Shown here: positions 32,501-45,120 of the stretch, piece after piece
Layout: each line of letters starts with the position of its first letter
How positions within the stretch are numbered: position 1 is the first letter of the stretch
Assembly: GCA_034189135.1 (NCBI GenBank)
Contig: JAXHVO010000031.1
Location: 1 to 51,435, forward strand
Length of the DNA: 51,435 nt
From: Thermodesulfobacteriota bacterium
Lineage (GTDB): Bacteria > Desulfobacterota > Desulfobacteria > Desulfobacterales > JAUWMJ01
Direction of reading: 5' to 3'
Program-made: the position numbers and the translations under genes
Notes under the pieces: model-generated
Told to the model about the DNA's origin: nothing
Database searches by the model: none
Seen by the model: the letters and a program-made list of their open reading frames with translations, nothing else

Positions 32501-33017
32501 AATCGCCCGGTTCCTCTACAATAGAGGTTTCCTCATATCCACCGAAAATCATTTTCTCGATCAAAGCATCACGTTCAATCTCTTCATTCACCATTATCAG
32601 ATCAGCAAAGTGGATGATTTCTTTTCGCGGAATCATTTTCTGCAGCATCGCTTCCACTGTGGTCACCACAATGGACGGCCCATTATTTTCAATCAACTTA
32701 TATAGTGTCCGAATTCGTCTGGCTGCGGTTTCGTTGTGATAAGAGAGAAATTTAAATGGTGAAATATGATAAGGAGGAAAATATAGCAGTGCGGATGCAT
32801 CATTTCCTAAAAAAAAATTCAGATCTTCCAGAAGCCTTTCCGCATATTTTGGGGAAGGGGTCAGCAGAAAAATGGAATTCTTCTGCTTTTGGTATGCCCT
32901 TGAAATTAAATAGGCTTTTGCTGATTCTTCCAGCCCTGTGCATTCAATGGTCTGTTCTCTTGCAGATATTTTATCAATCAGGGTTTCAACTGAAATTTTT
33001 TCTTGATTTGGATTCAT
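29502..33017 (-). CDS. mfd: Transcription-repair coupling factor Mfd
   Basis: 1171 residues. The UvrB-like N-terminal region has YFPPYHISPFKFLSYHNE and ETSIVEEPGDFSIRGGILDIF. The RNA polymerase interaction domain (LIVHVEHGIGRYEDLVKL) is followed by the translocase with Walker A GDVGYGKTEVALRA, the DEEQ box LVLDEEQRFGVKHKE and GLDIPSANTIIVNRADRFGLAQMYQLRGRVGR, and the C-terminal TRCF domain (ITISAYIPESYIPD). Mfd removes stalled RNA polymerase and recruits UvrA. I chose ATG at 33017 over an upstream TTG. Full length, intact. Confidence 0.97.
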   Translation of the reverse strand: MNPNQEKISVETLIDKISAREQTIECTGLEESAKAYLISRAYQKQKNSIFLLTPSPKYAERLLEDLNFFLGNDASALLYFPPYHISPFKFLSYHNETAARRIRTLYKLIENNGPSIVVTTVEAMLQKMIPRKEIIHFADLIMVNEEIERDALIEKMIFGGYEETSIVEEPGDFSIRGGILDIFSPMYPDPLRVEFFGDTVDSIRSFSAASQRKIRDLKEAVILPAKEAVLVKKRIPLIISRIRQRASRLDMPVSRTRKIISRIRHEGLFPGLESLIPLVYTKLDTLFDYLPSDTLFINTEPEELEKAATELETRIFKNFELARSEKRLCVRPESLYLKWEDITDTFLKKKPLILRILPILREQNDKDQGPLQYTLSTHDHSDLSLALKTHMEKERLLLPLAQWIKNNTQAGLKTIIVCHSTPQADRLISLLAPYPVEPKTMARFSDITQGKGFEFICLGRISSGFVWPDESLAVITQNEIFGAKHRKKLKPKQSVHAKLLAFEDLKKEDLIVHVEHGIGRYEDLVKLKIDGSTNDFLLIIYKDSDKLYLPVDRMNMIQKYMGVDGIDPVLDKMGGKSWERVKNSVKRTAEKIAGELLKIYAARKVEQGFAFEAIDSSLHDFEAGFSYEETQDQLNAIDDVLSDMEKPTPMDRLICGDVGYGKTEVALRASFMAVFNGKQVAVLVPTTVLAQQHFETFSSRFERYPIKVACLSRFRSPKEQRAIINDLKIGKVDIVIGTHRLLSKDVIFKDLGLLVLDEEQRFGVKHKEKLKKIRHNVDVLALTATPIPRTLHLSLMGIRDISVISTPPEYRRAIITYISEIDDAIVSEAVRRELGRGGQVYFVHNNIHSIWKMAGKLKKLIPEVRLEVAHGRMNEDELERVMLKFMNKEIDMLVCTTIIESGLDIPSANTIIVNRADRFGLAQMYQLRGRVGRADEQAYAYLFIPDETSLGKDAVKRLKVLMEHSDLGAGFQIAMSDLKIRGGGTILGASQSGHIAAVGYDMYLKLMENAVSQLKGKPVIESLEPEINITISAYIPESYIPDIDQRLSAYRRLTKMAELSEIADFKAEIMDRFGALPREAANLLLKIILKVLSVKAGVKRLDLRGGMLMLHFSAVHQKNPPGIVDVVVSNKRLYELSPDHIFKARLSNSSFNGLVAQVRKILKEIAQRVNN

Positions 33018-33070
33018 AAACAAAGTAGTTGTTTCTCATTTGTGGGTAGTTAATGCATAATACATCTTTA

Positions 33071-33146
33071 GCCGGCGTAGCTCAGTTGGTAGAGCAGCTG
33101 ATTCGTAATCAGCAGGCAGGCGGTTCGACTCCGCCCGTCGGCTCCA
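33071..33146 (+). tRNA. tRNA-Thr (anticodon CGT)
   Basis: A 76-nt cloverleaf with encoded CCA. The acceptor stem GCCGGCG pairs with CGTCGGC (one G-U). The D arm is GCTCAGTTGGTAGAGC. The anticodon stem GCTGA/TCAGC holds the loop TTCGTAA, giving anticodon CGT, which reads ACG (Thr). The T arm is GGCGG-TTCGACT-CCGCC. It is transcribed away from mfd, and prophage genes begin immediately after it, so its 3' end is the likely integration site. Confidence 0.96.
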
Positions 33147-33152
33147 AACATT

Positions 33153-33192
33153 AAAAGGGATTACGGCCACTTAGGTCGAAATCCCTTTTTTA
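33153..33192 (+). terminator. Rho-independent terminator after tRNA-Thr
   Basis: AAAAGGGATT at 33153-33162 pairs with AATCCCTTTT beginning near 33180, followed by a T-run (CCCTTTTTTA). It ends the tRNA transcript at the chromosome/prophage boundary. It is also a possible part of the att region. Confidence 0.8.
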
Positions 33193-33239
33193 TACTAAAA
33201 CATAAAACTCGGCAAATCAAGGCAAAATACGGCAATTTT

Positions 33240-33626
33240 GCGCCCCTTTTTGTCCCCCTTTTTATTTTCATTTTTATCGGTGGAACACTTTCCGGCTGTG
33301 CATCACTCGATATCCATCCTGACCCCTGGACCAAAGATCAAAAAATAATGCAAGGCACAGTCACGCTGCTAAATATTATTGACTGGGGCCAGACACTCGA
33401 CATTGTAGATAAGCCAGACCAATATTACGAAATCAATCCATATCTCGGTAAGCATCCAAGTCGGGGAAAAGTTAATAAATATTTTTTCTGCACCATACCA
33501 GCAAAAATCCTTATAACTCACATATTGCCATCAGGTTGGCGTAAATGGTGGCTCGGCGTAAATATTTCGATTTCTGGCTATCTTGTGGGCCATAATTGGC
33601 ATGTAGGATTGAGGGCAAACTATTAA
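33240..33626 (+). CDS. Phage-associated lipoprotein gene lacking a start codon
   Basis: The frame is open from about 33192 and encodes a hydrophobic stretch (PLFVPLFIFIFIGG) and a lipobox (LSGC) before SLDIHPDPWTKD. It continues into DWGQTLDIVDKPDQYYEINPYLGKHPSRG, a pattern I associate with lipoproteins in phages of this group. No ATG, GTG or TTG occurs in this frame before 33348, which lies after the lipobox. So the gene has either lost its start through integration beside the tRNA, or uses a rare start (for example ATC at 33216). The given start is the first codon of the hydrophobic region, not a proven start. Starting at the ATG at 33348 would leave 92 residues without a signal peptide. 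Confidence 0.55.
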   Translation, partial: APLFVPLFIFIFIGGTLSGCASLDIHPDPWTKDQKIMQGTVTLLNIIDWGQTLDIVDKPDQYYEINPYLGKHPSRGKVNKYFFCTIPAKILITHILPSGWRKWWLGVNISISGYLVGHNWHVGLRANY

Positions 33627-33642
33627 CAACGAGAGGTTTGAT

Positions 33643-34233
33643 ATGATTTCAATAAACGTAAAATCAAATGTTAAACAATTTACCCGGCATTTAACCAGGA
33701 TTGAAAAGAAACAGGTGCCCTTTGCCACCGCCAGGGCCTTGACCTGGACCGCCCAGGACGTGCAAAAATGGTTGATCAAAAAAATTCCCTCAATCTTCAA
33801 CGTGACTAAAAAGTGGTGGCTCAAACAGCAGCCGACCGGAATTAAGATCAAACCGGCAAAAAAGAATTATCTGGTCTCATCGATCTATACCAAAGCATAT
33901 TTTGCCAACCTCCAGGAAGAAGGCGGAACCAAGCGGCCAACCAGAAGCAAGAATCTTGTCATACCGACAAAAAAAGTTCCAAAGTCCAGGCGTAAAGCCG
34001 GCGGTGCAGCGGTCATGTTAAAGGGCAAAAAAGTGTTTTCAACCGCCCGGGGTATTTATCGCAGAAAGGGCGGAAAGAAGAGCAGGACCATTGAACTGCT
34101 ATTTCATAAAGAGCGGTCCGCAAATATCAAGCCCCGGTTTAACTTTAGACAAACAGCGCACAGCATTGCCACTCGAATGTTTAAAAGAAATTTTTTACGA
34201 TCGCTGGCCGGTGCGCTAAAGACCAGGAGATAA
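33643..34233 (+). CDS. GpZ-like phage minor tail protein
   Basis: 196 residues, strongly basic. The N-terminal half has FATARALTWTAQDVQKWL, resembling the FAxAxALNxTA pattern of prophage minor tail protein Z (gpZ) proteins, which connect head and tail in lambda. The middle and C-terminal parts carry many Arg and Lys (KKVPKSRRK, RRKGGKKSR). A GAGAGG site precedes the start. Its place before the terminase genes rather than among the tail genes is unusual. Confidence 0.6.
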   Translation: MISINVKSNVKQFTRHLTRIEKKQVPFATARALTWTAQDVQKWLIKKIPSIFNVTKKWWLKQQPTGIKIKPAKKNYLVSSIYTKAYFANLQEEGGTKRPTRSKNLVIPTKKVPKSRRKAGGAAVMLKGKKVFSTARGIYRRKGGKKSRTIELLFHKERSANIKPRFNFRQTAHSIATRMFKRNFLRSLAGALKTRR

Positions 34234-34240
34234 TACAAAA

Positions 34241-34261
34241 GGGGGGATAAAAATACCCCCC
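34241..34261 (+). other. Six-G/six-C hairpin
   Basis: GGGGGG at 34241-34246 pairs with CCCCCC at 34256-34261 around an A/T-rich loop. No T-run follows, so it is not a classical terminator. It lies just after the GpZ-like gene, in a 137-bp gene-free gap before the SLOG gene; the rest of the gap shows nothing I recognise. Confidence 0.5.
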
Positions 34262-34370
34262 ACCTCAACATATTGATATTATAGCGGGTCCTTCTGGTTA
34301 ACATACTGCGGGTAACGCGCAGAGGGCGATACATTTTTAGTTCCAGGATTTTTCCCAGGGAGTTCGTTTC

Positions 34371-34715
34371 ATGAAAATTGCAATCGTCGGATCCAGAAGC
34401 TTTCAAGATTATGGATTGTTGATGAAAACTATGGCCAAACATAAACCAAGCGCAATCGTTTCCGGGGGCGCCAAAGGCGCGGACACCCTGGCGGAAAGAT
34501 ATGCCGGAGAAATCGGCGTTGACTGCATTATTTTTAAGCCTGACTGGAAAAGATACGGCCGGGCAGCCGGGCCAAAGCGGAACAAGCAAATCGTCGAAGC
34601 GGCGGACCGGATCATCGCATTTTGGAACGGAAAAAGCCGCGGGACATTCTCAACGATAACGCTGGCAATGAAGGCGAGGAAACCGGTTGATGTTGTACGA
34701 TTTGTGGAAAAGTAG
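34371..34715 (+). CDS. YspA-like SLOG domain protein (DUF2493)
   Basis: 114 residues, a complete small Rossmann-like SLOG protein. Signatures are MKIAIVGSRSFQDY at the N-terminus and IVSGGAKGADTLAERYAGEIGV, typical of the YspA/DUF2493 group, with an acidic pair near DRIIAFWNGKSRGT. SLOG proteins bind nucleotides or nucleotide-derived signals; the ligand here is unknown. It overlaps the next gene by 26 nt, so they are translated together. The ATG at 34371 has AGGGAG 8 nt upstream. Confidence 0.85.
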   Translation: MKIAIVGSRSFQDYGLLMKTMAKHKPSAIVSGGAKGADTLAERYAGEIGVDCIIFKPDWKRYGRAAGPKRNKQIVEAADRIIAFWNGKSRGTFSTITLAMKARKPVDVVRFVEK

Positions 34716-35670
34716 AAAAACCGGAATTCATTTTTTATTCGACTATACGCCAAAATCTCAATTTATGAAAAAGGGCAATAAAGACGATTTCGACGGAACG
34801 ACGATTAATTTTAAAATGTATAACACCGGGGCAAAAGAGTTTTCCGAAATCATCCAAGCTTTAAAAGAAATATTTAAAGCCGAGATCTCAATCGGGATCC
34901 CGCCGGCGACGGCCGAAGATAACAACATTCAAAGGATTTGCGATAAAGATATTTATTTTGAAGCCACCAAAGAAAGAAAAAAGCGCCACAAAACAACCAT
35001 AAAACTGAACGTCAAAAAAGAAACCGATCGATTAAAGATCAAGCGAACCCGGAAAAAAATAAACCGGGCTATTTTGTGTGATGATATTGCCACCACCGGG
35101 CACACCATGAACATTTACTCAAAAATTGCCATCAATTCCGGCGTGGGCGAAGTAATACCCTTTGCGATCGCACACAAAAAGGCAGCCAAAACATATCAAC
35201 ATGGAATTTATTTAACCGAAAAGCAGGACATTTACGATCTTAAACGTATAGCGGAACTTTTGAGCCTTTCACAAAGGCGCGTCCAACAATTAGTTAAAGA
35301 TCGGGTTTTGCCCAGGCCGAACAAAAGGGAATTCGACATGGCCGGCTGTGTTTTTGGCTATGTTAAATTTTTACGGGACCGCGCCGGCGGCAATGGCGAT
35401 TTATCGTTGAACGAAGAGCGCGCAAGGTTGGCAGCGGCACAAGCAAATTTGCAGGAATTAAAGATTGCCCAATTAAAAGGCGAATTAATCCCGGCCGATA
35501 AAATAGCCGAAACCTGGAGCCGAATTATCACCGCTGCAAAGATGCAGTTTTTAGCCTTGCCAGATCGGTTGGCTCAAATGCTTGAAACTGCATCCACAGC
35601 CAATGCCCGCCGGATCGTAATTGATGCAGAAATTAAAAACATTCTGGAAGCTTTAGCAGATGGAAAATAA
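34690..35670 (+). CDS. Phosphoribosyltransferase-terminase small subunit fusion
   Basis: 326 residues in one uninterrupted frame. The N-terminal part (about 1-170) resembles ComF-like phosphoribosyltransferases: EISIGIPPATAED, a long basic helix, then the PRPP-binding loop AILCDDIATTGHT (about residues 127-140) and GEVIPFAIAHKK. The C-terminal part (about 180-326) is a Nu1-like small terminase: HTH DLKRIAELLSLSQRRVQQLVKDRVLP followed by a long helix (AARLAAAQANLQELKIAQLKGELIP-type) and DRLAQML. The second part would recognise phage DNA and assemble with the large subunit encoded next (overlap 11 nt). No separate start for it is seen. GAGGAAA lies upstream of the ATG at 34690. Confidence 0.8.
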   Translation: MLYDLWKSRKTGIHFLFDYTPKSQFMKKGNKDDFDGTTINFKMYNTGAKEFSEIIQALKEIFKAEISIGIPPATAEDNNIQRICDKDIYFEATKERKKRHKTTIKLNVKKETDRLKIKRTRKKINRAILCDDIATTGHTMNIYSKIAINSGVGEVIPFAIAHKKAAKTYQHGIYLTEKQDIYDLKRIAELLSLSQRRVQQLVKDRVLPRPNKREFDMAGCVFGYVKFLRDRAGGNGDLSLNEERARLAAAQANLQELKIAQLKGELIPADKIAETWSRIITAAKMQFLALPDRLAQMLETASTANARRIVIDAEIKNILEALADGK

Positions 35671-37552
35671 TATACAAACGATTGATGCAACACAAAACCT
35701 TGATTTCTTAGCGGCCCGAATGCTTAACACCTGGCGTCCGGCCAAACCCATCACCGGCACCAAATGGGCTGAATCCAACCGAGTTTTGTCCAAAGAAAAC
35801 TGCCCGCTTCCCGGGCCTTACCGGGTGGCGGTCACGCCGTATATTGAAGAGATCCTAAATTGCGTGATGGATCCGATGATTGAGAAAGTGGTCTGTCAGA
35901 AATCGGCCCAGGTGGCCTGGACGGATGGAGTGGTAAATAACTGTGTGGGTTATTATGTGGATCATGAGCCATCGCCGATGCTGATCCTTTTCCCTACCAG
36001 CAAAATGGCGGAAAGATACAGCAAGGAAAAACTGGCGCCAATGATCCGGGATTGTATAGCATTGCGGGGAAAAATTGCCGAACCGAAATCAAGAGATTCG
36101 GGCAATACCATTTTATCAAAAAATTTTACCGGCGGGCATCTTGAACTGATAGGCTCGAACGCTCCGGCCAATCTTTCCATGTCACCGATACGGATCGTTA
36201 TTGTCGAGGAACCGGACCGGTGCGCGGCCAATGCAGGCGGTGAGGGGAATTCGCTTAAAATCGCTTTTGAGCGCACCAAGGCTTTTCATAATCGCAAGAT
36301 TATTCTAGGCGGATCTCCGACAATCAAGGGGCTATCTGAAATCGAGCGCGAAATGAAATTGACCGATCAGAGAAGGTTTTTAATACCCTGCCCGATATGC
36401 GGGGAATACCAGGAACTAAAATGGTCGTCAGTGGTATGGGACAAAAAACCCGGGCGGAATCATCTCGTTTATGATGACTATTTGCCTGAATCGGCCATGC
36501 TGCGCTGTATTAGCTGTGAAAAGGAATTCAGCAACGCGGAGAAAAACGAACAGCTTTCCAGGGGAATATGGCACCCGACCGCAGAATTCACCGGGGCAGC
36601 CGGATTTTATTTATCTGAACTGTTGTCCCCTCTTCCAAATTCCAAGCTTTCTGACATCGCTAAAAAATTTCTTGAAGCGAGAAAAGAATTAAAAGCCGGA
36701 AATGAACTTTTAATGATCACTTTTATAAATACTGCCCTGGGCGAAACATGGGAAGAAAAAGGCGAAGGCATTGAACAGCGGGACATTATCGAACGCGTGG
36801 AAACCTACCGCAAAAACGCCATCGATCCCGGGATATTGGCCATTACTTCTGCGGTTGATGTCCAGGACGATCGCCTTGAATGCGAAATTGTTGGTTGGGG
36901 AATGGGGGAAGAATCCTGGTCCCTGGACTATTTAATAATCGAAGGGGATCCGGAACAACCCGGAGTATGGAAAAAACTTGATAAAGTTTTAGAGCGCACG
37001 TTCAAGCGATCCGGCGCCTTGCTCAAAATAGCCTGTATGTGCGTTGACTCCGGAGCGCACACCAACGCCGTTTATAAATATGTTTTACCGCGCCAGGTCC
37101 GCAGGGTTTATGCCATAAAAGGTAAAAGCACCGAGGGGGATCCCATTGTCGGCAGACCATCAAGGCGATCGATCATGAAGGGTTTAAAACTTTATCCGGT
37201 CGGCACAGATACAGCCAAAACCGCTGTTTATGGTCGATTAAAGGTTGAAAAGCCCGGCCCCGGGTATTGCCATTTTCCGGATCACTATCCGGATGAATAT
37301 TTTAAACAGCTTACCGCAGAAGAACTTGTTACCCGATATGTTAGAGGCGTCACCAAACGGGTATGGAAGAAAAAGCGGCCACGAAATGAGGCTCTTGATT
37401 TAAGGGTTTACAACCTGGCAGCGCTCAATATCTTAAATCCCAATTTCAAAGTTCTACAAGCCAAGGCAGAAAAGGTCAAGAAAGAGAAACCGAAAGATTC
37501 CATGCGGGCACCCAGGCCCCGCAGACGAAAAAACTTTGTAACCAATTATTGA
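35660..37552 (+). CDS. Phage terminase large subunit, GpA family
   Basis: 630 residues. The ATPase domain has a Walker A-like QKSAQVAWTDG (about residue 79) and Walker B IVIVEEPDRC (about 176). Two CxxC pairs (CPICGE near 243 and CISCEK near 283) are typical of the GpA/lambda family. The C-terminal nuclease domain contains SAVDVQDDRLECEIVGWG and CVDSGAHTNAVYKY. It cuts and translocates phage DNA into the prohead. Its start overlaps the end of the small-subunit fusion. Confidence 0.95.
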   Translation: MENNIQTIDATQNLDFLAARMLNTWRPAKPITGTKWAESNRVLSKENCPLPGPYRVAVTPYIEEILNCVMDPMIEKVVCQKSAQVAWTDGVVNNCVGYYVDHEPSPMLILFPTSKMAERYSKEKLAPMIRDCIALRGKIAEPKSRDSGNTILSKNFTGGHLELIGSNAPANLSMSPIRIVIVEEPDRCAANAGGEGNSLKIAFERTKAFHNRKIILGGSPTIKGLSEIEREMKLTDQRRFLIPCPICGEYQELKWSSVVWDKKPGRNHLVYDDYLPESAMLRCISCEKEFSNAEKNEQLSRGIWHPTAEFTGAAGFYLSELLSPLPNSKLSDIAKKFLEARKELKAGNELLMITFINTALGETWEEKGEGIEQRDIIERVETYRKNAIDPGILAITSAVDVQDDRLECEIVGWGMGEESWSLDYLIIEGDPEQPGVWKKLDKVLERTFKRSGALLKIACMCVDSGAHTNAVYKYVLPRQVRRVYAIKGKSTEGDPIVGRPSRRSIMKGLKLYPVGTDTAKTAVYGRLKVEKPGPGYCHFPDHYPDEYFKQLTAEELVTRYVRGVTKRVWKKKRPRNEALDLRVYNLAALNILNPNFKVLQAKAEKVKKEKPKDSMRAPRPRRRKNFVTNY

Positions 37553-37553
37553 C

Positions 37554-37766
37554 ATGCCAACAAATAAAAAAATTCTAATCGGCCAAAATGAAATAATGGA
37601 TTATATTGGCATAAAATCAGTTGAACTGTTTGTAAATTTTATCAGATCCGGAATGCCTGCAAAAAAAATCAATGACCGCTGGTATGCCCACGGTGAAAAT
37701 CTGGATGAATATTTTAAACGTCTTACAAAAGTAAGGAATAAATCAGTCCCGTCAGCGACAAAATAG
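37554..37766 (+). CDS. Small MerR/excisionase-like HTH protein
   Basis: 70 residues. IGQNEIMDYIGIKSVELFVNFIRSGMPAKKINDRWYAHGENLDEYFKRLT-type layout: a helix, HTH pair, wing (NDRWYAHG) and a C-terminal helix, as in MerR-like or Nu1-like DNA-binding domains. It follows the terminase gene by 1 nt and may be an extra DNA-recognition subunit or a local regulator; the function is not known. A 7-bp palindrome (TGATTGT-ACA-ACAATCA) lies just downstream at 37784-37800. Confidence 0.65.
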   Translation: MPTNKKILIGQNEIMDYIGIKSVELFVNFIRSGMPAKKINDRWYAHGENLDEYFKRLTKVRNKSVPSATK

Positions 37767-37783
37767 TTTTCGTTAGACGGAGA

Positions 37784-38024
37784 TGATTGTACAACAATCA
37801 ACATTAAGATTTACTTGACTAACCACCCACCAATAATGATATCTTTATTTGAGGCCAAGTCTGGATATTCTCAATATATCTGTAGTCTCGTTTTTTTTGT
37901 TTCAAGAATTTGTCACCAATTTAATGGTTGATAGAAATTGACTATTTTTTTTGTCCCAATTAGGGTATTAACGAGACGTCTATTTAACATGCCCATATGG
38001 AACATAAACGAGATGTTTATTGAA
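37784..38024. promoter_or_regulatory. Upstream region of cargo block: palindrome and direct repeats
   Basis: The 289-bp gap between the HTH gene and the DUF2971 gene contains a perfect inverted repeat TGATTGT-ACA-ACAATCA (37784-37800) and a pair of near-identical 17-mers, ACGAGACGTCTATTTAA at 37971-37987 and ACGAGATGTTTATTGAA at 38008-38024 (37-bp period). GTTAGAC at 37771 and GTTAGGA at 38031 resemble integron core sites. The region is AT-rich and unlike the neighbouring phage DNA. Confidence 0.4.
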
Positions 38025-38055
38025 TAACAATGTTAGGAATTGCCTTAGGCTAACC

Positions 38056-38916
38056 ATGCTGATGACACCAAAATTAGAGGCACATTTAAGCGTTGCACCA
38101 CCAGCCAAGCTGTACCACTACACCTCAACGGAAGCATTTCGTTGCATTGTGGAACATAAAAAGATTTGGGCAACCGACGCATTTTATATGAATGACAACC
38201 AAGAGATTCTGCATGCGTTAAACTTGTTTCAAGAGACATGCAGATCTCTTGCCAAAAGTAAAGTCGATCATGAGCTTGCCTTTTTAGAAAAGCTACTTGG
38301 CGAGTTGAATTTTCAGAAAACAGATCAGCCACATATCTTTACAGTGAGCTTCTCAGCAAGCCGGGACCAGCTAAGTCAATGGCGCGCATATACGAGAAAT
38401 GGCGGATACGCACTTGCATTTAATGGGGATGCCTTGTCGCATGTCGCAGACACTCAGGGGTATCGACTTGTTAAGTGTGTATATCAACAGAAAGAAAAAA
38501 TTCAGCTCATTGAAGAATACTTAGATGCAAAGTTAAGCGTATCCGCGGTGGATCCAGATATATTAGCAGTAACTACAGCAATTGATTTTCTGGAAATAGC
38601 TGCAATGATGAAGCATCAAGGGTTTGCTGAAGAGAATGAGTGGAGGTTGATATCAACAAGTAGCCGCCTAAAGGTTGAGAACATAGAGTATCGCAGCGCA
38701 TTGAGATACCTAATTCCCTATCTGGAGGTCGATATCGGCACTACTAATATCCCGCAGCTTAACGACCCAAGAGATTACATCGGAATCAACGAGGTGCTTG
38801 TAGGACCAGTCCCAGAGCCAGAGTTGTCATGGCGATCCTGTATGCAATTACTTCAAGATCGCATGATTTTTTTTGAACAAATCACCCCTTCAAGCACCCC
38901 CTTTAGGGCGAGCTAG
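38056..38916 (+). CDS. DUF2971 family protein (cargo gene 1)
   Basis: 286 residues. DUF2971 features are KLYHYTSTEAFRCIVEHKKIWATDAFYMNDNQE near the N-terminus, FTVSFSASRDQLSQWRAYTRNGGYALAF in the middle and ENEWRLI near residue 200. The family is common in phages, plasmids and integron cassettes; its biochemical role is not known to me, and some contexts suggest defence or toxin-like roles. The ATG at 38056 is chosen; an upstream TTG would add 12 residues. Composition is more AT-rich than the phage genes around it. Confidence 0.7.
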   Translation: MLMTPKLEAHLSVAPPAKLYHYTSTEAFRCIVEHKKIWATDAFYMNDNQEILHALNLFQETCRSLAKSKVDHELAFLEKLLGELNFQKTDQPHIFTVSFSASRDQLSQWRAYTRNGGYALAFNGDALSHVADTQGYRLVKCVYQQKEKIQLIEEYLDAKLSVSAVDPDILAVTTAIDFLEIAAMMKHQGFAEENEWRLISTSSRLKVENIEYRSALRYLIPYLEVDIGTTNIPQLNDPRDYIGINEVLVGPVPEPELSWRSCMQLLQDRMIFFEQITPSSTPFRAS

Positions 38917-38968
38917 TTGTAAGATCTATGGACGTAAGCAATAGCATTCCTTACCTCGAACGTTAGCT
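38911..38968 (+). other. Weak attC-like site 1
   Basis: AGCTAGT at 38911-38917 and GTTAGCT at 38962-38968 are partly complementary, with GTAAG (38919-38923) pairing with CTTAC (38950-38954) inside. It sits between two cargo genes and overlaps the DUF2971 stop codon. The core site deviates from GTTRRRY at one position, so this is a weak candidate. Confidence 0.35.
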
Positions 38969-38997
38969 GCTAAACTATACGCCATAAAAAATTATTC

Positions 38998-39573
38998 ATG
39001 GGAAATTTTATGAACTTTCTTGCAGGCATATTTGGAAATAGCAAAAAACAGCTTGGAAAAGTAGCAGCTCATCTCATACCAAGGCTACAGGAAGTTAGAG
39101 AAAGGTGGACAGAATACTGTGTGGCACTATTAAATGAAATGGGAGTTTCACCAGCAAGAACCATACTCTCAGAAGATGGTTTAGCTTGTGTTGCTGCCTT
39201 TCAGTATTTCATGTTCACCCAACTTGCCCATGAAAAAAAATATATCAAAACTGCAAAAAGAGAAGAATTTTTCAATCTAATTGCTAACATGATAATCCAT
39301 GAGAATAATATTGCCAGAGACGCCTTCATATCCAAGCTCAAGTCCTTCGACGAAACAACCGAAACATCACAGCTTATTTTTATTTTAGCAGAGTGCGTAG
39401 CTAAGGATCTTGTTGGGAAGGAAGCTGTCTTAGGTGAGTCAGTGGCACTATCATCTAATGTAAATCTCCTTATTGTCATGACCAAAATGATTTCAGCTGA
39501 ATCATTCAGGGATTTTAAAACTGCAAAGGAATTCGAGAACATATATGACACCATGTTTAACCCTAACACGTAA
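38998..39573 (+). CDS. All-helical orphan protein (cargo gene 2)
   Basis: 191 residues, not recognised. The sequence is almost entirely helix-forming, with an amphipathic N-terminus (MNFLAGIFGNSKKQLGKVAAHL). No signal peptide, membrane helix or enzyme motif. The gene stands alone in 5' and 3' AT-rich DNA and ends 12 nt before an attC-like site. The product of the next gene has a similar length and an N-terminus of the same type (MFRKLRSLFSSSK), so the two may be distant relatives. Confidence 0.6.
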   Translation: MGNFMNFLAGIFGNSKKQLGKVAAHLIPRLQEVRERWTEYCVALLNEMGVSPARTILSEDGLACVAAFQYFMFTQLAHEKKYIKTAKREEFFNLIANMIIHENNIARDAFISKLKSFDETTETSQLIFILAECVAKDLVGKEAVLGESVALSSNVNLLIVMTKMISAESFRDFKTAKEFENIYDTMFNPNT

Positions 39574-39585
39574 ACCCAAAAATAC

Positions 39586-39659
39586 AGCTAACAAAGCCAT
39601 CTCAGAGTTACTGGCAGGGCAATGTGGCTTTGACTTTTCGATTTACCTTAACGTTAGGC
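39586..39659 (+). other. attC-like recombination site 2 (VCR-like)
   Basis: A 74-nt imperfect inverted repeat right after cargo gene 2. It starts with AGCTAACAAAGCC, has CAAAGCC (39592-39598) exactly complementary to GGCTTTG (39626-39632), and ends in AACGTTAGGC, containing the integron core consensus GTTRRRY at 39653-39659. The first part resembles the Vibrio cholerae repeats (TAACAAACGCC...GGCGTTT) in order and spacing. The next gene's ribosome binding site begins shortly after it, as in cassette arrays. Confidence 0.55.
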
Positions 39660-39686
39660 ATCGAATATCGGATCGGAGATTCTCTC

Positions 39687-40292
39687 ATGTTCAGAAAACT
39701 AAGGAGTCTATTTTCATCAAGTAAAGATGTCCCAACACCTCAAGAGAAAGCAAAAGCTGTATACTTTGTTTTAATTTCACAAGGAAGAGCTATAATCCGA
39801 GATATTCTTTACTCCGCCCCAGATCAATTTAAGGATTCTGAAGACTATAAGGCTTTTCTGGGAAACGAAATTGGCGTAATAATGTGTTTACACTCTACGC
39901 ATGAAGGCTATGAACGTTTTTTCGCAGATAGGCAGGAAAGTAAATTATTTGTTGCCACTCTATCTTCGTTATTTAAACATCATCTGAAAATATCTTGGGA
40001 GGTCTTTGAACTTTACGTCAGTCTCGGGGAAAATCATGAAAAGCCTGACAAAATATTTATGGACATCTTTACTAGTCGTATAGTTGCTTTTCTTAACCAA
40101 GACGATGAGGCCTTTACCAAAAAAGAAAAAACTTTATTTTACGCGCGGCATCCGGAATCATTAATCTATGCGGAATACTATGTTGCGATCTTTGAATCGG
40201 TTTGCCGAATTCTGAATGAATATGCTGAGGAATCCGCAAATATTAGAAAAATACGTGAAATGGCAAATGAGCTAGATGAATGTCTCAAATGA
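39687..40292 (+). CDS. All-helical orphan protein (cargo gene 3)
   Basis: 201 residues, not recognised. Mostly helical, rich in aromatic residues and Glu; an amphipathic basic N-terminus (MFRKLRSLFSSSKDVPTPQEK). No catalytic motif or export signal seen. A GGAG site lies 9 nt upstream of the ATG at 39687, between that codon and the attC-like core. Its 3' end is followed by another attC-like repeat. Small orphan genes in this form are typical of integron cassettes. Confidence 0.6.
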   Translation: MFRKLRSLFSSSKDVPTPQEKAKAVYFVLISQGRAIIRDILYSAPDQFKDSEDYKAFLGNEIGVIMCLHSTHEGYERFFADRQESKLFVATLSSLFKHHLKISWEVFELYVSLGENHEKPDKIFMDIFTSRIVAFLNQDDEAFTKKEKTLFYARHPESLIYAEYYVAIFESVCRILNEYAEESANIRKIREMANELDECLK

Positions 40293-40333
40293 TGTCTTTC
40301 ATTATTCAAACTTTATATTAAAGAGCTTTCTGT

Positions 40334-40409
40334 GGCTAACAACAGCTGCAACCTGAACTGGCTTTTCCTTTGGCGTTCCTAAACCAGCCGGTTAAGCTGA
40401 AATTTAGAA
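40334..40409 (+). other. attC-like site 3, core decayed
   Basis: GGCTAAC at 40334-40340 is followed by CAGCTGCAACC, which pairs with GGTTAAGCTG (40390-40399) with one extra base on one side; extrahelical bases of this kind are a mark of attC sites. Inside, AACTGGCT pairs with AGCCGGTT. The final core expected near 40403 reads TTTAGAA instead of GTTRRRY. It follows cargo gene 3. Confidence 0.45.
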
Positions 40410-40560
40410 TCTCCCACATATACAAACTTTCGGAGACTCCTCAAAAGTTGTGATATTTTATTGTCAATTGAAGTTTTAACTTAATTTCCAATTCTGTCAA
40501 ATCAAGTATAGGCCAAGGCAAATAGGCCTTATCCCAAAAACCCTGTCAATTCATTTAAGC

Positions 40561-40604
40561 ACCGGTTTCTTACCGGTTTCGTACCGGTTTCGTACCGGTT
40601 TTAC
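40561..40604 (+). repeat. Four tandem 11-bp repeats (ACCGGTTTCGT)
   Basis: Four units in a row: ACCGGTTTCTT, ACCGGTTTCGT, ACCGGTTTCGT, ACCGGTTTTAC. Each contains the palindrome ACCGGT at an 11-bp period, about one helical turn, so a protein could bind all copies on one face. They lie 10 nt before the terminator-like hairpin in front of the gpW-like gene. Confidence 0.7.
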
Positions 40605-40613
40605 CTTTTTAGC

Positions 40614-40657
40614 AAAAACCCCGTGTTATGTTTTCCCAAAATTTCACGGGGTTTTTT
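40614..40657 (+). terminator. Terminator-like hairpin directly abutting a start codon
   Basis: AAACCCCGTG (40616-40625) pairs with CACGGGGTTT (40645-40654), followed by TTT and immediately by the ATG at 40658. It has the form of a Rho-independent terminator, but the right arm also contains the CACGGGG that would serve as ribosome binding site for the next gene. It may stop cargo-block transcripts or control translation. Confidence 0.65.
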
Positions 40658-41203
40658 ATGACCGATATTCCAACCAAAGAACCATTGTCATTTCGCGCGG
40701 GCGATACCGTCAAGTGGAAAAAATCACTTGACGATTACCCGGCCACGTCCTGGACGCTCAAATATTTCCTGGTTATTCAATCCGATCAAAAAATTATTAC
40801 CGCATCACCCGACGGGACTGATTTTCTAATCACCATCACCGCCGCGGCATCTGCCGGCTACGTGGTCGGGCGCTATTCTTACCAGGCGCGTGTTGAGAAT
40901 GTCGGCGGAGATAAAACCACGGTCGGAGATGGCATCGTTAAAGTCAAACCGAATTTAGAGTTGGCGACCGCCGGTGCGGATTACAGATCCCACGTCAAAG
41001 CCGTTTTAGATGCGTTGGAAGCGACTATTTTGGGAAAAGCTTCCAGCGACCAGCTTTCATACTCGATTGCCGGCCGATCACTGTCAAAATTATCTCCGGA
41101 AGAACTGATTGCCTGGCGGGATCATTACCGGGCGGAATATCTCAGGGAAGAACGAAAGGCCGGACGTGGCCGCCCGCAAAAAATAAAGGTTCAGTTTCCA
41201 TGA
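40658..41203 (+). CDS. Phage protein with gpW-like C-terminal region
   Basis: 181 residues. The N-terminal half is beta-rich (LSFRAGDTVKWKKSLDDYP, TDFLITITAAASAGYVVGRYSYQARV) and not recognised. The C-terminal part (about 110-170: VLDALEATILGKASSDQL, SYSIAGRSLSKLSPEELIAWRDHYRAEYLRE) is like small head-tail joining proteins of the gpW type, which follow terminase and precede portal in lambda-like phages, as here. The ATG at 40658 is preferred; the ATG at 40628 lies in the loop of the hairpin. Its stop overlaps the portal start. Confidence 0.65.
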   Translation: MTDIPTKEPLSFRAGDTVKWKKSLDDYPATSWTLKYFLVIQSDQKIITASPDGTDFLITITAAASAGYVVGRYSYQARVENVGGDKTTVGDGIVKVKPNLELATAGADYRSHVKAVLDALEATILGKASSDQLSYSIAGRSLSKLSPEELIAWRDHYRAEYLREERKAGRGRPQKIKVQFP

Positions 41204-42777
41204 ATATGTTTCAAGGAAAAACAGTAGGTGAACATCTGGACAGCTTCAACCGGATCATATCGGCAGTTCGTAAATATGCGACAAAAGCCAATCAGTCATT
41301 GACGTTCAGGAAATTAAGGCCGGAACTGCGACGAAATCGACACCGGAGAAACTATACGGCAGCCGAAAACCATCGGTTGTTAAAAGATTGGCCCACCACT
41401 GGCGGTACCGCTGATGCTGAAATTTACTCAGCACTCAGGCCGCTTAGAATCCGCAGCCGGCACCTGGCCAAAAACAACGATTATGCCAAACGCTTTTTTA
41501 ATTTGCTGAAAACCAACGTGGTCGGACCCAAGGGCATCGGACTGCAGGCCCGCGCCAAAAACGACCGCGGCGAGCTGGATGAATCCGACAACAATCACCT
41601 GGAAAACGAATGGCGAAACTGGGGCAAAAAAGGCGTTTGCACCGTGGACGGCAAGCTTTCCCTGGTCGACTGCCAGAAACTGTTTATGGAAACCGTGGCC
41701 CGGGACGGCGAGGCGGTTGTGCGTAAAATAAGAAACTGGCCGGGAAACCGCTTTAAGTTCGCCCTGCAGTTTATCGAGCCGGACTTTCTGGATCACGAAT
41801 TAAATAAAACGCTGCCCAACGGAAACACCATTCGCCTGGGCGTCGAATTCAACCAATGGCGTCAGCCGGTGGCGTATCATTTCAAAAAACAATCGGCGGC
41901 GTTAAATATCTTCAGCGAAAGCGCAAATGTTTACGACCGTCACGAACGGATCCCTGCCGGTGATATCATCCATGAATTTATTGTGGATCGCATCGGTCAG
42001 AGCCGCGGCGTCCCCTGGCTGCATACCGCCGGTAAGCGCCTGCACATGCTGGGGGGCTATGAAGAGGCCGAAGTTGTTGCCGCTCGTACCGCAGCGGCAA
42101 AGATGGGTTTTTTCAAGTCGGATACCGGAGAAGAGTATGTCGGCGACGAAGAGGATCCCGAGGATACCACCCAGGCCCCGGTGATGAATGCCGAGCCGGG
42201 TACCTTTGAAGAACTGCCGGCGGGTATGGATTTTGTCAAATGGGATCCGGACCATCCCACCAGCGCTTTTGAAGCCTTTGTGCTGGCGATTTTACGCGGC
42301 GCGGCAGCCGGGTTGAACGTGTCTTATGTCAGCCTGGCCAATGATTTACGCGGCGTTTCCTACAGTTCCATCCGCCAGGGCGCACTGGACGAACGGGACG
42401 GCTGGCGCACCCTTCAGGGATGGCTGGTCGAGCATTTTTTGGCCGATATCTGGGAAAATTGGCTCACCATGGGGTTGACCTCCGGAGCGTTGAACCTGCC
42501 GCCGCGAAAATTCGATAAATTCAACTCGGTGATCTGGCAACCGCGGGGCTGGCAATGGGTAGATCCCAAAAAAGACGGTGACGCCAACGAACGCGACGTG
42601 GTGAACGGTTTTCGCTCGCCGCAGATTATCGCCGGCGAACAGGGCCATGACCTGATCGAAGTATATGAGCAGATCGCAGCAGCCAAGGAACTGGCTGAAA
42701 AATACGGTTTGCAATTAGGTATATTCAACGGGGGCAAAAATGAGCAAAAAATCATCGCAGAAATCGACCACGATTAA
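41200..42777 (+). CDS. Phage portal protein, lambda family
   Basis: 525 residues. Lambda gpB-type portal features: RIRSRHLAKNNDYAKRFFNLLKTNVVGPKGIGLQ, EAVVRKIRNWPGNRFKFALQFIEPDFLDHEL, IHEFIVDRIGQSRGVPWLHTA and LRGAAAGLNVSYVSLANDLRGVSYSSIRQG. It forms the dodecameric DNA entry ring at one vertex. The start overlaps the previous stop by 4 nt (ATGA), and its 3' end overlaps the protease-capsid gene by 38 nt. Confidence 0.95.
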   Translation: MNMFQGKTVGEHLDSFNRIISAVRKYATKANQSLTFRKLRPELRRNRHRRNYTAAENHRLLKDWPTTGGTADAEIYSALRPLRIRSRHLAKNNDYAKRFFNLLKTNVVGPKGIGLQARAKNDRGELDESDNNHLENEWRNWGKKGVCTVDGKLSLVDCQKLFMETVARDGEAVVRKIRNWPGNRFKFALQFIEPDFLDHELNKTLPNGNTIRLGVEFNQWRQPVAYHFKKQSAALNIFSESANVYDRHERIPAGDIIHEFIVDRIGQSRGVPWLHTAGKRLHMLGGYEEAEVVAARTAAAKMGFFKSDTGEEYVGDEEDPEDTTQAPVMNAEPGTFEELPAGMDFVKWDPDHPTSAFEAFVLAILRGAAAGLNVSYVSLANDLRGVSYSSIRQGALDERDGWRTLQGWLVEHFLADIWENWLTMGLTSGALNLPPRKFDKFNSVIWQPRGWQWVDPKKDGDANERDVVNGFRSPQIIAGEQGHDLIEVYEQIAAAKELAEKYGLQLGIFNGGKNEQKIIAEIDHD

Positions 42778-44695
42778 AACCGGCATTTTTTACCGCATGA
42801 CCGACGGCGGCGTGGATGTTCGCGGCATCGATGAAGAGAAACGAACGGTGAAGCTGTCCTTTTCATCCGAAGCGCCGGTGGATCGGTATTTCGGGCAGGA
42901 AATTTTAAACCATGACCAAAAAAGTGTCAATTTGACATTTTTAAACAGCGGTCGCGCGCCGCTGTTGAAAGATCATTTTTCGTTTGAACAGACAGGGGTG
43001 GTTGAATCCGCCAGGATCGGGACTGACCGTATGGGCCGGGCAGTGGTGCGATTTGGAAAGTCGCAGCTTGCCGATGACGAATTCAACGACGTGGTGGACG
43101 GCATTCGGTCGAACGTGTCGGTCGGATACCGCATAAACAAGATGGTTCTTGAGGAACAAAGCGAGGAAAACGGGGACGTTTACCGCGTGGTCGATTGGGA
43201 ACCATTGGAAATCAGTATCGTTTCGATCCCCGCGGATCAGAGCGTCGGCGTTGGACGCGCCGCCAGAGATTCCCGGGAGTTTGAAACCATGGTTATTAGC
43301 GAAAGGAGTGTAAACAAAATGCCTGATCAAATAGTTAAACAACCCGATGCCGTCGTTACCCGGTCGGATCCGCCCACAGCGGCCGCACCCAAAGCACCGG
43401 AAATCGATGTGGACCAGATTCGACGCGAAACCGCCCAAGCCGAACAGAGACGGGCGGCGGATATTATCGCGCTGGGTGAAATGCACGGCTATCGCGACGA
43501 TGCCATCCAGGCCATCAAGGACGGAAAAACCGTGGATCAGTTCCGCCAGTTCGTTTTGGACAAGCTGGCCGAAAAGGGCCTCACGCCGGTGGAGGATCCG
43601 GATCCGGCCATCGGGTTATCCGGGAACGAACAGCGCCAGTTTTCCTTTATCCGCCTGATTCGTGCCCTGGCCGATCCTAAAGATGCCAAGCTGGCCGAGG
43701 AGGCCGGGTTCGAGCTCGAATGCAGCCGGGCGGTGGCAGATAAAATCAAAAAGGCGCCGCGCGGTGCGTTTATTCCGTGGGACGTCATGCTGCACGGTCA
43801 ACGAGATCTGAACACCACCGATGACGCCGCGCTGGTGGCGACCAACCTGCTGGCCGGATCGTTTATCGACGTGTTGCGAAATAAGATGGTGGTCAAGCTG
43901 GCCGGCGCACGCATCCTGGACGGTCTGATCGGTAACGTGGCCATTCCCAAAAAGACCGCAGGTGCTTCCGTGTACTGGGTGGCCGAGGGTATCACGGAAA
44001 ACCCGACCGAAAGCGAAGCGAGCTACGGAACGGTTTCCCTGAGCCCGAAAACCGTGGGCACTTACACCGAAATTACCCGGCAAATGCTGTTGCAGTCCAC
44101 CCCGGCCATAGAGATGCTGACCCGCGACGATCTGGCGGTGGCGGTGGCCCTGGGCATCGATCTTGCCGCACTCCACGGCACCGGGGTAAGCAATCAGCCC
44201 ACCGGGATCGCGGCCACGTCCGGCATCGGCAGTGTGGCCGGCGGCGCCAACGGACTGGCACCCACCGATGATCACATTATCGACCTGGAAACCGAGGTTG
44301 CCATCGACAACGCCGATCTGGGCGCTCTGGCCTATATCACCAACGCCAAGGTTCGCGGCAAGCTGAAAAAGACCGATATCGGCACCGATACCGGCCAGAG
44401 GGTATGGGATCGTCAAAGCCCCAAATCACCGCTGAACGGATACCCGGCCCATGTGACCAACCAGGTGAAAAGCGACCTGGACAAGGGAACATCCACCGGC
44501 GTTTGCAGTGCCATCTTTTTCGGCAACTGGTCCGATCTGTTAATCGGCATGTGGGGTGCTCTGGATATCCTGGTCGATCCTTACACCTACAGCAAATCCG
44601 GCGGTCTTCTGGTCCGGGCGCTGCAGGATGTCGATACCGCGGTCCGCCATGCCGAAAGCTTTTCGGCCATGCTGGACGCGTTAACCACACCTTAA
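42740..44695 (+). CDS. Fused prohead protease and HK97-type major capsid protein
   Basis: 651 residues. The N-terminal 190 residues resemble HK97-type prohead proteases (RGIDEEKRTVKLSFSSEAPVDRYFG, LLKDHF with a candidate catalytic His, IRSNVSVGYRI with a candidate Ser, EPLEISIVSIPADQSVG). A Gln/Ala/Glu-rich scaffold-like helix (about 230-300) follows, then the HK97 capsid fold (AEGITENPTESEASYGTVSLSPKTVGTYTEITRQMLLQS, ALHGTGVSNQPTGI, FFGNWSDLLIGMWG). One gene thus encodes protease, scaffold and shell. An internal start at 43319 could give capsid alone. Confidence 0.9.
   Translation: MSKKSSQKSTTIKTGIFYRMTDGGVDVRGIDEEKRTVKLSFSSEAPVDRYFGQEILNHDQKSVNLTFLNSGRAPLLKDHFSFEQTGVVESARIGTDRMGRAVVRFGKSQLADDEFNDVVDGIRSNVSVGYRINKMVLEEQSEENGDVYRVVDWEPLEISIVSIPADQSVGVGRAARDSREFETMVISERSVNKMPDQIVKQPDAVVTRSDPPTAAAPKAPEIDVDQIRRETAQAEQRRAADIIALGEMHGYRDDAIQAIKDGKTVDQFRQFVLDKLAEKGLTPVEDPDPAIGLSGNEQRQFSFIRLIRALADPKDAKLAEEAGFELECSRAVADKIKKAPRGAFIPWDVMLHGQRDLNTTDDAALVATNLLAGSFIDVLRNKMVVKLAGARILDGLIGNVAIPKKTAGASVYWVAEGITENPTESEASYGTVSLSPKTVGTYTEITRQMLLQSTPAIEMLTRDDLAVAVALGIDLAALHGTGVSNQPTGIAATSGIGSVAGGANGLAPTDDHIIDLETEVAIDNADLGALAYITNAKVRGKLKKTDIGTDTGQRVWDRQSPKSPLNGYPAHVTNQVKSDLDKGTSTGVCSAIFFGNWSDLLIGMWGALDILVDPYTYSKSGGLLVRALQDVDTAVRHAESFSAMLDALTTP
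43304..43321 (+). promoter_or_regulatory. Internal ribosome binding site and start for capsid-only product
   Basis: AAGGAG at 43303-43308 lies 10 nt before an in-frame ATG at 43319 (residue 194, MPDQIVKQP). It falls exactly at the boundary of the protease and scaffold/capsid parts. Initiation here would give a protein of about 458 residues. Confidence 0.65.
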
Positions 44696-44795
44696 CCGGG
44701 AAAGATATAAGGGTTGACGAATGGTTTTAGCAACCACCAACGCGGGCGCGCTCATATCCGGGCGCGTCCGCTCAACTACCAACAAGGGGGTTATT

Positions 44796-45068
44796 ATGCC
44801 CGAAATCAAGCAAATTACCATTGCCCGCAACACGGTTGCGGGAGGAAAAGCGGTGGAAGTGGGTGACGTGTTAACCGTGGGAGAAGACATCAGCGAAAAC
44901 GACGCCCTGTTTTTAACCCAGATCAAAAAAGCGGTTTCTGATGTTGATGTAGAGAAAGACATGGAAATCGATCCGTCAAAAATGACGGGGCCGGATCCGG
45001 AAAACCGTGAAACCGAGCAGGAAAAGACAATCGCCAAACGCGGGGCGAATAAAAAAGGCAGAAGGTAA
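44796..45068 (+). CDS. Small phage protein between capsid and head-tail genes
   Basis: 90 residues, not assigned. EIKQITIARNTVAGGKAVEVGDVLTVGEDISENDALFLTQIKKAV looks like a small beta-rich domain followed by an acidic and basic tail. Proteins of this size and place often bind the head-tail junction or decorate the capsid. The ATG at 44796 has a clear AAGGGGG site; an upstream in-frame ATG (44721) would add 25 residues with no such site. The stop codon lies inside the left arm of a hairpin at 45063-45120. Confidence 0.6.
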   Translation: MPEIKQITIARNTVAGGKAVEVGDVLTVGEDISENDALFLTQIKKAVSDVDVEKDMEIDPSKMTGPDPENRETEQEKTIAKRGANKKGRR

Positions 45069-45120
45069 AAGGCTGAAGACTGAAGGAAAAAGCGTTCAAT
45101 CACCCTTCAGCCTTCTACCT
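45063..45120 (+). other. 15-16-bp hairpin after the small head gene
   Basis: AGGTAAAAGGCTGAAG at 45063-45078 pairs with CTTCAGCCTTCTACCT at 45105-45120 (one mismatch) around a 26-nt loop. It lies in the gap between the small gene and the head-tail joining gene, includes the stop codon of the former, and has no T-run. Confidence 0.65.

What the first reader, a model, noticed from the sequence alone, without database searches (positions are those of the whole stretch)
34690..35670. Phosphoribosyltransferase fused to terminase small subunit
One 326-residue frame joins a ComF-like PRTase domain (PRPP loop AILCDDIATTGHT) to a Nu1-like small terminase with HTH. I know of no described terminase with such a domain. 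It could couple packaging to nucleotide or PRPP level, modify DNA or a nucleotide, or counter host defence. A sequence slip joining two genes is possible but would need two genes that abut without a start codon in between.
Basis: partly seen in the sequence, partly recalled or inferred. Interest (0 to 1): 0.72.

Follow-up and report, generated by a model that had tools for sequence, protein, structure and literature searches.

The report
Enzyme domain fused to DNA-packaging protein
A virus integrated in a bacterial genome carries a gene that joins a nucleotide-enzyme domain, of a kind used in bacterial anti-virus toxins, to the protein that starts DNA packaging, beside a likely controlling partner gene; it may tie virus-versus-virus defence to packaging, but this is untested.

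Summary
Window 34690-35670 is one frame of 326 codons: residues 1-~167 are a ComF/ShosT-like phosphoribosyltransferase (PRTase) with intact PRPP loop, residues ~180-326 a small terminase (phrog_57, E 1e-25) overlapping the large-terminase gene, in a prophage at tRNA-Thr.

The preceding gene (34371-34715, 26-base overlap) is a SLOG protein related to DprA/ShosA/PsyrA. DprA/SLOG plus PRTase is the logic of the ShosTA and PsyrTA/RqlHI toxin-antitoxin defence pairs. Against a sister provirus (large terminase 88% identical), 1.1 kb carrying SLOG, PRTase and another terminase DNA-binding domain stands where the sister has 0.3 kb. Three other phages have a SLOG and a PRTase at the terminase locus: as separate genes in two; in MW202482.1 the PRTase is fused to an HGGxSTG domain whose only other phage relative found sits directly before a large terminase. 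Neither gene was found in 121 control terminase loci.

Best reading: a prophage-borne SLOG-PRTase effector module fused to the small terminase; a variant of a known kind. No reads were available, so a one-base error at the joint is unlikely but not excluded. Function is inferred.

The parts
33071..33146 (+). tRNA-Thr (cgt), likely attachment site of the prophage
   Evidence: ARAGORN; the 3' end and following bases are shared with the sister provirus L016 (82.6% over 161 columns)
33643..34233 (+). minor tail / neck-type phage gene, left neighbour
   Evidence: phrog_1924 E 6e-30; 90% identical to the gene before the small terminase in L016
34361..35481 (.). 1,121-base block that stands where L016 has 316 bases (L016 1398-1713): SLOG, PRTase and DNA-binding part of the small terminase
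   Evidence: blastn of window 32901-51435 against L016; at protein level the similarity of the terminase resumes at 35401
34371..34715 (+). SLOG gene (YAcAr, 114 aa), candidate partner or antitoxin of the PRTase; overlaps the next gene by 26 bases
   Evidence: PF10686 E 3.6e-17 and PF02481 DprA E 2e-9; PADLOC ShosA E 7.3e-7, PsyrA E 5.3e-6
34676..34679 (+). GAGG, ribosome-site-like, 10 bases before the ATG of the fused frame
   Evidence: duplex energy -7.5 kcal/mol against a background mean of -2.9
34690..35670 (+). fused frame, 326 aa: PRTase plus small terminase
34690..35190 (+). PRTase domain, residues 1-~167 (PRPP loop 35068-35106)
   Evidence: the end is set by eye where relatives stop
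35191..35229 (+). linker of about 13 residues, the joint
   Evidence: by eye between the end of PRTase relatives and the HTH of terminase relatives; no start codon in frame
35230..35667 (+). small terminase: winged HTH (~181-232) and helical C-terminal part
   Evidence: phrog_57 E 9.7e-26; predicted with high confidence in the second model
35660..37552 (+). large terminase, GpA type, overlaps the fused frame by 11 bases
   Evidence: PF20454 E 1.2e-94, PF05876 E 5e-75

Best explanation
A temperate phage carries, in its terminase region, a two-gene SLOG-PRTase module that works like the ShosTA and PsyrTA/RqlHI pairs, and here the PRTase is one protein with the small terminase. Shown: the open frame, both domain identities, the overlapping SLOG gene, the block difference from the sister provirus, and the recurrence of SLOG plus PRTase at three other phage terminase loci. 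Inferred: the SLOG restrains (or senses for) the PRTase; the PRTase uses PRPP on a base or nucleotide; the terminase part gives DNA binding and oligomerisation, as the helicase part does for the PRTase of RqlH, and still serves packaging. The likeliest benefit is to the prophage: an effector against rival phages or satellites, held in check until foreign DNA or the packaging stage disturbs the SLOG.
For: One frame, two homologous halves. SLOG partner with 26-base overlap. PRPP-loop residues intact, D131, D132, T135, G137 in 15 of 15 rows. Five other phage genes comparable with L016 or L017 around the joint align over nearly their whole length in one frame, so no general decay or poor assembly. 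SLOG plus PRTase also at the terminase loci of L010 (G093) and L086, both found without SLOG as a query, and of MW202482.1, where the PRTase is again fused to another domain; 0 of 121 control terminase loci have either. A DprA+PRTase pair in a P2-like phage hotspot beside cos protects against T7 and lambda, and DprA homologues are antitoxins (PMC9122126, passages). In RqlH the PRTase is toxic only with its partner domains and needs its PRPP pocket (PMC4670107, passages).
Against: One assembly, no reads. Close relatives have the small terminase alone. The matches of the window SLOG to ShosA and PsyrA cover about 50 residues only, P0001 has no ShosT match at E 0.1, and no helicase. YAcAr SLOG genes are common in phages (960 of 50,697 records), and 12 of 13 such loci examined have no PRTase motif nearby. 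Most of the related PRTases in IMG/VR lie beside RadC, not SLOG (26 of 40). The window PRTase lacks about 12 residues before R96, so activity is not assured.
Confidence: 0.45

Rival explanations
1. Two separate overlapping genes that one sequencing or assembly length error, or a recent mutation in this prophage, has joined in frame. The SLOG-PRTase cassette is real but not physically coupled to packaging.
For: An ATG in another frame at 35201 is followed by a stop about a dozen bases later, so one length change there would be enough. Separate PRTase genes at terminase loci exist in L010 and L086. The fusion was seen once, and homologous small terminases are separate. Lack of a ribosome site at the joint is weak evidence against this, as four of eight terminase starts checked in relatives (L016, L017, L018, L027) also lack a strong one.
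Against: That ATG has no ribosome-site-like sequence (-1.8 kcal/mol). Comparable genes around the joint show no frameshift against L016 or L017. MW202482.1 has a second PRTase fusion in a terminase region.
Confidence: 0.25
2. A PRPP- or nucleotide-sensing small terminase: the PRTase domain is a sensor that adjusts DNA binding and so packaging to the nucleotide state of the cell, as PRPP does for the PRTase-fold repressor PurR.
For: PRTase folds have been taken over as DNA- or RNA-binding regulators: PurR and PyrR are so described in PMC9005727 (passage). The domain sits next to a winged HTH.
Against: It does not account for the SLOG partner or for separate SLOG-PRTase genes at other terminase loci. 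PRTase relatives in other contexts are neither fused to terminases nor near them (as far as examined).
Confidence: 0.12
3. Counter-defence: SLOG and PRTase together process a nucleotide-derived immune signal or repair NAD-type depletion in the host; the join to the terminase only secures late expression.
For: Viral SLOG domains are proposed to counter host signals derived from ADP-ribose (PMC9503650, passages).
Against: PRTase pairs with DprA/SLOG partners that have been tested are toxin-antitoxin or defence systems. A small terminase is a late protein (recalled), too late to stop an early host response.
Confidence: 0.1

Closest known systems
ShosTA, and the DprA+PRTase defence pair of the P2-like phage hotspot beside cos (PMC9122126)
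   Same: SLOG/DprA-type protein encoded next to a ComF-like PRTase; carried by a phage near its packaging region; a true ShosA/ShosT pair on viral contig L171 overlaps like the window's genes
   Different: SLOG is a short YAcAr protein, not full DprA; no ShosT model match for the window protein; the PRTase is fused to a small terminase
PsyrTA / RqlHI
   Same: PRTase joined to a DNA-acting protein, with a DprA-like antitoxin; best PADLOC match of the PRTase part is PsyrT
   Different: the partner of the PRTase is a small terminase, not a RecQ-like helicase, and the domain order is reversed (RqlH has the PRTase at its C-terminus)
Small terminase, phrog_57 / Nu1 type
   Same: winged HTH, helical C-terminal part, place before a GpA-type large terminase
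   Different: extra N-terminal PRTase of about 167 residues; 77 related frames closed at the 5' end are 157-211 aa
PRTases of phage polyvalent and MuF proteins (PMC5512222)
   Same: ComFC-like PRTase in a multidomain phage protein encoded among morphogenesis genes (passages)
   Different: fused to a small terminase, not to MuF; SLOG partner
UOF77580.1 'prtase' of phage MW202482.1
   Same: PRTase fused to another domain in a terminase region, with a YAcAr SLOG gene beside it
   Different: N-terminal HGGxSTG domain, PRTase C-terminal; SLOG convergent; Terminase_6N-type large terminase; one further gene between it and the large terminase

Membership tests
Small terminase (phrog_57) | Profile match over the whole domain | tested here: met
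   E 9.7e-26, residues 176-324 against 7-171 of 199
Small terminase (phrog_57) | Gene directly before the large terminase | tested here: met
   11-base overlap with a GpA-type large terminase
Small terminase (phrog_57) | Ring oligomer that binds the packaging site | not testable with these tools
   needs purified protein
PRT (phosphoribosyltransferase) family | PRPP loop with DD and T.G | tested here: met
   LCDDIATTGHT; D131, D132, T135, G137 in 15 of 15 rows
PRT (phosphoribosyltransferase) family | PRT fold | tested here: inconclusive
   Model pLDDT 61, pTM 0.59; Foldseek best E 0.037, none at 0.001; VIA-align Z 6.1 (orotate PRTase) and 5.9 (ShosT, 139 aligned), the listed rows nearly all PRTases or PRPP synthetases
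PRT (phosphoribosyltransferase) family | Pfam gathering score | tested here: not met
   PF00156 17.1 bits against 26.3; L010, L086 and several others of the phage group also fall short
ShosTA | PRTase gene beside a DprA/SLOG gene | tested here: met
   SLOG 34371-34715
ShosTA | Match to the ShosT model | tested here: not met
   no ShosT match for P0001 at E 0.1; only PsyrT
ShosTA | Full-length ShosA/DprA partner | tested here: not met
   ShosA match covers residues 2-51 of 114, 117-170 of 303 in the model
ShosTA | Toxicity neutralised by the partner; phage protection | not testable with these tools
   needs expression in a laboratory strain
PsyrTA / RqlHI | Helicase domain in the PRTase protein | tested here: not met
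   no helicase family in Pfam at E 1
ComF/ComFC | Four-cysteine zinc finger before the PRTase | tested here: not met
   only two cysteines, C84 and C130, in residues 1-176 (sequence); finger described in PMC9005727
ComF/ComFC | NCBIfam comF cut-off | tested here: not met
   27.3 bits against 233.55

The most novel reading that the evidence does not exclude
Phages of unrelated groups have independently fused a SLOG-controlled PRTase effector to their small terminase (window: PRTase N-terminal; MW202482.1: PRTase C-terminal to an HGGxSTG protein that probably holds the small-terminase position), making a packaging-stage effector that acts on nucleotides or DNA at the packaging site and excludes competing phages or satellites.
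Probability: 0.22. Interest if true: 0.82.

Novelty: new variant of a known kind. Interest (0 to 1): 0.6.

Why it matters
DprA/SLOG-PRTase pairs are known as toxin-antitoxin and anti-phage systems, but their trigger and the substrate of the PRTase are poorly understood (my reading of the passages). A natural fusion of such a PRTase to the protein that recognises phage DNA for packaging, beside a SLOG partner, names a concrete place of action and makes trigger and substrate directly testable. It also marks the terminase locus of other phages as a landing site for such cassettes, beside the cos hotspot of P2-like phages.

Tried and rejected
Searches that gave nothing: tblastn of the whole protein (E 0.01) and of the PRTase part (E 10) in 50,697 phage records; peptide-pattern scans of viral contigs with P0001, the PRTase part and alignment A1; genome contigs with P0001; blastn of the cassette in plasmids and phages. 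These pattern scans find close relatives only. So no second copy of this exact fusion came from these collections.

Profile A2 over 389 genomes of the class mostly returns generic cellular PRTases (347 of 389 genomes have some match at E 0.001); among the rows listed only G000 and G093, both members of the alignment, stand out (E < 1e-40; next 1.6e-10). A1 over 395 genomes of the phylum found the window's own genome only (1 of 395 at E <= 1e-12). A phrog_57 scan of 395 genomes of the phylum lists 16 matches at E < 1e-10; G000 has the longest stop-to-stop frame (332), then 288 (G409, whose ORF from its start codon is 203 aa, without PRTase) and 270 (G497, not inspected).

Considered and rejected: that the N-terminal part is a chance frame; that it is ComFC (no zinc finger); that SLOG beside the PRTase is the rule for this PRTase group. 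Among 40 IMG/VR PRTase loci 26 have RadC, 3 a YpsA SLOG, 1 DprA, 1 ArdC, 9 none of these; their PRTase frames, present whole in 36 of 40, are 169-267 aa and were not scanned with a terminase model. Of 18 phage records with such PRTases I fetched 8: 5 have a YpsA SLOG, 1 RadC, 2 neither. Of 960 phage records with a YAcAr SLOG I fetched 10, and with 3 IMG/VR loci 1 of 13 has a PRTase. The SLOG link is therefore claimed for terminase loci, not for phage PRTases or phage SLOGs at large. By Pfam the SLOGs of L010 and L086 are nearer DprA than YAcAr, and that of L086 stays below the cut-offs.

The chance figures 1.3e-4 (2 of 2 loci against 0 of 121) and 3.2e-6 (3 of 3, window included) treat loci as independent. 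L010 and L086 are related (PRTases 61% identical), many controls are related to each other and have short flanks, so the figures are rough. MW202482.1 was found through its SLOG and is left out of them.

The full-length model had no PRTase rows in its alignment, so its first ~176 residues are not to be read; Foldseek with it gave only weak MerR-type look-alikes (best E 0.17). A mixed alignment of PRTases and terminases (A3) misaligned the domains and was dropped. A first paper search for ShosTA by word start returned unrelated papers.

Full report
WHAT IS THERE. Its second half is a small terminase: phrog_57 matches residues 176-324 at E 9.7e-26, the frame overlaps the large-terminase gene by 11 bases, and about 90 C-terminal residues are 66% and 64% identical to the small terminases of the related phages L016 and L017. 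Its first half is a phosphoribosyltransferase (PRTase). Single-protein matches are weak (PF00156 E 0.0035; comF E 3e-6; PsyrT E 7.7e-5), but in an alignment with 14 phage PRTases K42, P71 and the PRPP-loop residues D131, D132, T135 and G137 are shared by all 15 rows, Y19 and H100 by 14, R96 by 13. A profile of that alignment finds orotate and hypoxanthine PRTases and, at E 0.013, ShosT in the PDB. The predicted model is moderate (pLDDT 61, pTM 0.59). Foldseek has no match at E 0.001 or better; its best, E 0.037, is an orotate PRTase. VIA-align lists nearly only PRTases and PRPP synthetases, led by an orotate PRTase (Z 6.1) and ShosT (Z 5.9, 139 residues aligned), which are middling scores. By eye the window PRTase is about 12 residues shorter than relatives before R96.

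THE MISSED PARTNER. The gene just upstream, 34371-34715, encodes a 114-residue SLOG protein of the YAcAr family (PF10686 E 3.6e-17) with matches to DprA (PF02481 E 2e-9) and, over about 50 residues, to the antitoxins ShosA (E 7.3e-7) and PsyrA (E 5.3e-6). It overlaps the fused frame by 26 bases. Both genes have a ribosome-site-like sequence (-7.7 and -7.5 kcal/mol; background mean -2.9, 5th percentile -6.6); the other-frame ATG at the joint has none (-1.8). This is weak evidence, since four of eight small-terminase starts of relatives (L016, L017, L018, L027) lack a strong one too.

WHERE IT SITS. The prophage begins at a tRNA-Thr (33071-33146). The related provirus L016 (IMG/VR 3300031983_000058, large terminase 88% identical) carries the same tRNA 3' end, the same neck-type gene, and then a small terminase of 166 residues with its own ATG and another DNA-binding domain; its held upstream DNA shows no SLOG and no PRTase. 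By blastn the two are colinear up to window 34360 and again from 35482; 1,121 bases of the window stand where L016 has 316. At protein level the terminase similarity resumes at 35401. So SLOG, PRTase and the terminase's DNA-binding domain differ as one block with one edge inside the terminase gene; which of the two states is older is not known. L017 (large terminase 72% identical) also has a separate small terminase.

HOW RARE IS THE FUSION. Of 79 loci with relatives of this small terminase (of 96 found; the tool kept 80, one already held), 77 have a frame closed at its 5' end, 157-211 residues long, and none of the 79 extends more than 60 codons upstream of the match. The PRPP motif is absent from the held upstream DNA of 38 of 38 large-terminase loci, some with little upstream DNA. 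With profiles, 0 of 121 control terminase loci (775,717 bases) carry such a SLOG or PRTase. No relative of the PRTase part was found in 50,697 phage records with the window sequence as query.

BUT THE PAIR RECURS AT TERMINASES. In G093, a genome of the same order, the terminase locus L010 has a separate PRTase gene (155 residues from its ATG), a gene that looks HNH-like to me (Pfam found nothing in it), a small ORF, a SLOG gene on the other strand (PF02481 E 8.6e-11), then small and large terminase. The IMG/VR contig L086 has a SLOG gene (PF02481 E 1.2e-6, just below the cut-off) divergent from a PRTase gene 61% identical to that of L010, then a weakly HNH-like gene, a small ORF and a GpA-type large terminase. 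Neither was found by way of SLOG. Among 13 loci found through SLOG, one, MW202482.1 (complete circular phage, Podoviridae sp. ct4oC223), has a 333-residue protein, annotated 'prtase', convergent with the SLOG gene; one further gene of 132 residues lies on the same strand between it and the large terminase. Its C-terminal part is the PRTase (PF00156 E 2.8e-8; ShosT and PsyrT E 7e-6), its N-terminal part an HGGxSTG domain (29.2 bits, cut-off 29). The only other phage record that resembles this N-terminal part is Pasteurella phage Pm86, where the protein lies directly before the large terminase (pairwise E 4e-10), the usual place of a small terminase (recalled). That this domain is a small terminase is my inference.

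WHAT IT IS LIKE. In P2-like phages a DprA+PRTase pair in a hotspot beside cos protects against T7 and lambda, and DprA homologues are the antitoxins of shosTA, syrTA and rqlHI (PMC9122126, passages read). In RqlHI the PRTase is part of a helicase protein; changes in the PRPP pocket abolish most of the toxicity, the PRTase alone is not toxic, and the DprA-like RqlI restrains it (PMC4670107, passages). ComFC, a competence PRTase, binds PRPP and single-stranded DNA, and ComFC of other species interacts with DprA (PMC9005727, passages). PRTases fused to MuF proteins of phages (PMC5512222, passages) and sporadic fusions of SLOG domains to DNA-binding domains (PMC9503650, passages) are described. 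For the ShosT structures I saw PDB titles only. The IMG/VR contig L171 has a true ShosA/ShosT pair that overlaps like the window's genes. By the models the window pair is not a member of ShosTA or PsyrTA (membership test); it may work like them.

HOW IT MAY WORK. Shown: gene order, overlap, domains, recurrence. Inferred: the SLOG protein holds the PRTase in check; the terminase part brings the PRTase to DNA as an oligomer; when an invader or the packaging stage disturbs the SLOG, the PRTase alters a nucleotide pool or nucleotides at DNA and blocks the rival. Trigger and substrate are the weakest steps. A join by error or recent mutation, and a PRPP-sensing terminase, are the main rivals.

IS THE FUSION REAL. 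There are no reads. A start codon in another frame lies at 35201, so a single-base length error within about a dozen bases would be enough. Against this, the five genes around the joint that can be compared with L016 or L017 (33643-34230, 35672-37549, 40658-41200, 41113-42741, 42773-44689) align over nearly their whole length in one frame, so neither a poor assembly nor general decay is visible. I put a true fused gene at about 0.75.

PRINT. 'Terminase small subunit' with 'phosphoribosyltransferase domain' found 0 papers; 'terminase', 'fused', 'phosphoribosyltransferase', 'DprA' found two, whose PRTase passages tell of no such fusion. The library holds open-licence papers only.

Noticed in passing
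window 37554-40292: Between large terminase and the next structural gene lie a DUF2971 gene (38020-38916; PADLOC PDC-S31 E 3e-5) and two frames of low G+C (38998-39573 and 39624-40292; 37.7% and 36.9%) with no significant family: perhaps a second cargo or defence island.
   Followed up: partly
L171, 1378-2905: An IMG/VR contig carries an overlapping DprA/PRTase gene pair with strong ShosA (E 1.6e-96) and ShosT (E 7.4e-44) matches.
   Followed up: partly
L132-L171 and L087-L095: A group of short phage or mobile-element PRTases, 26 of 40 IMG/VR loci with a RadC gene beside the PRTase, 1 with ArdC; a DNA-processing neighbourhood that I have not seen described.
   Followed up: partly
L093, 2501-3511: PRTase and YpsA SLOG in one frame of 336 aa in an unannotated gut phage contig; the PRTase end is missing, so it may be an assembly or deletion product.
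   Followed up: no
L016, 1892-2284: The sister provirus has a 130-residue frame between small and large terminase that the window lacks.
   Followed up: no
window 48713-51433: Last frame of the contig, open at the end: a tail-type protein whose held end repeats '..SLMAVAHSTSPYITIYNTSDWSK..', which looks like beta-propeller repeats.
   Followed up: no
window 1617-17372 (minus strand): Host genes that look like a Tad/Flp-type pilus or secretion cluster, with two CpaF-like ATPase genes and FHA-domain proteins, named by eye from the translations.
   Followed up: no
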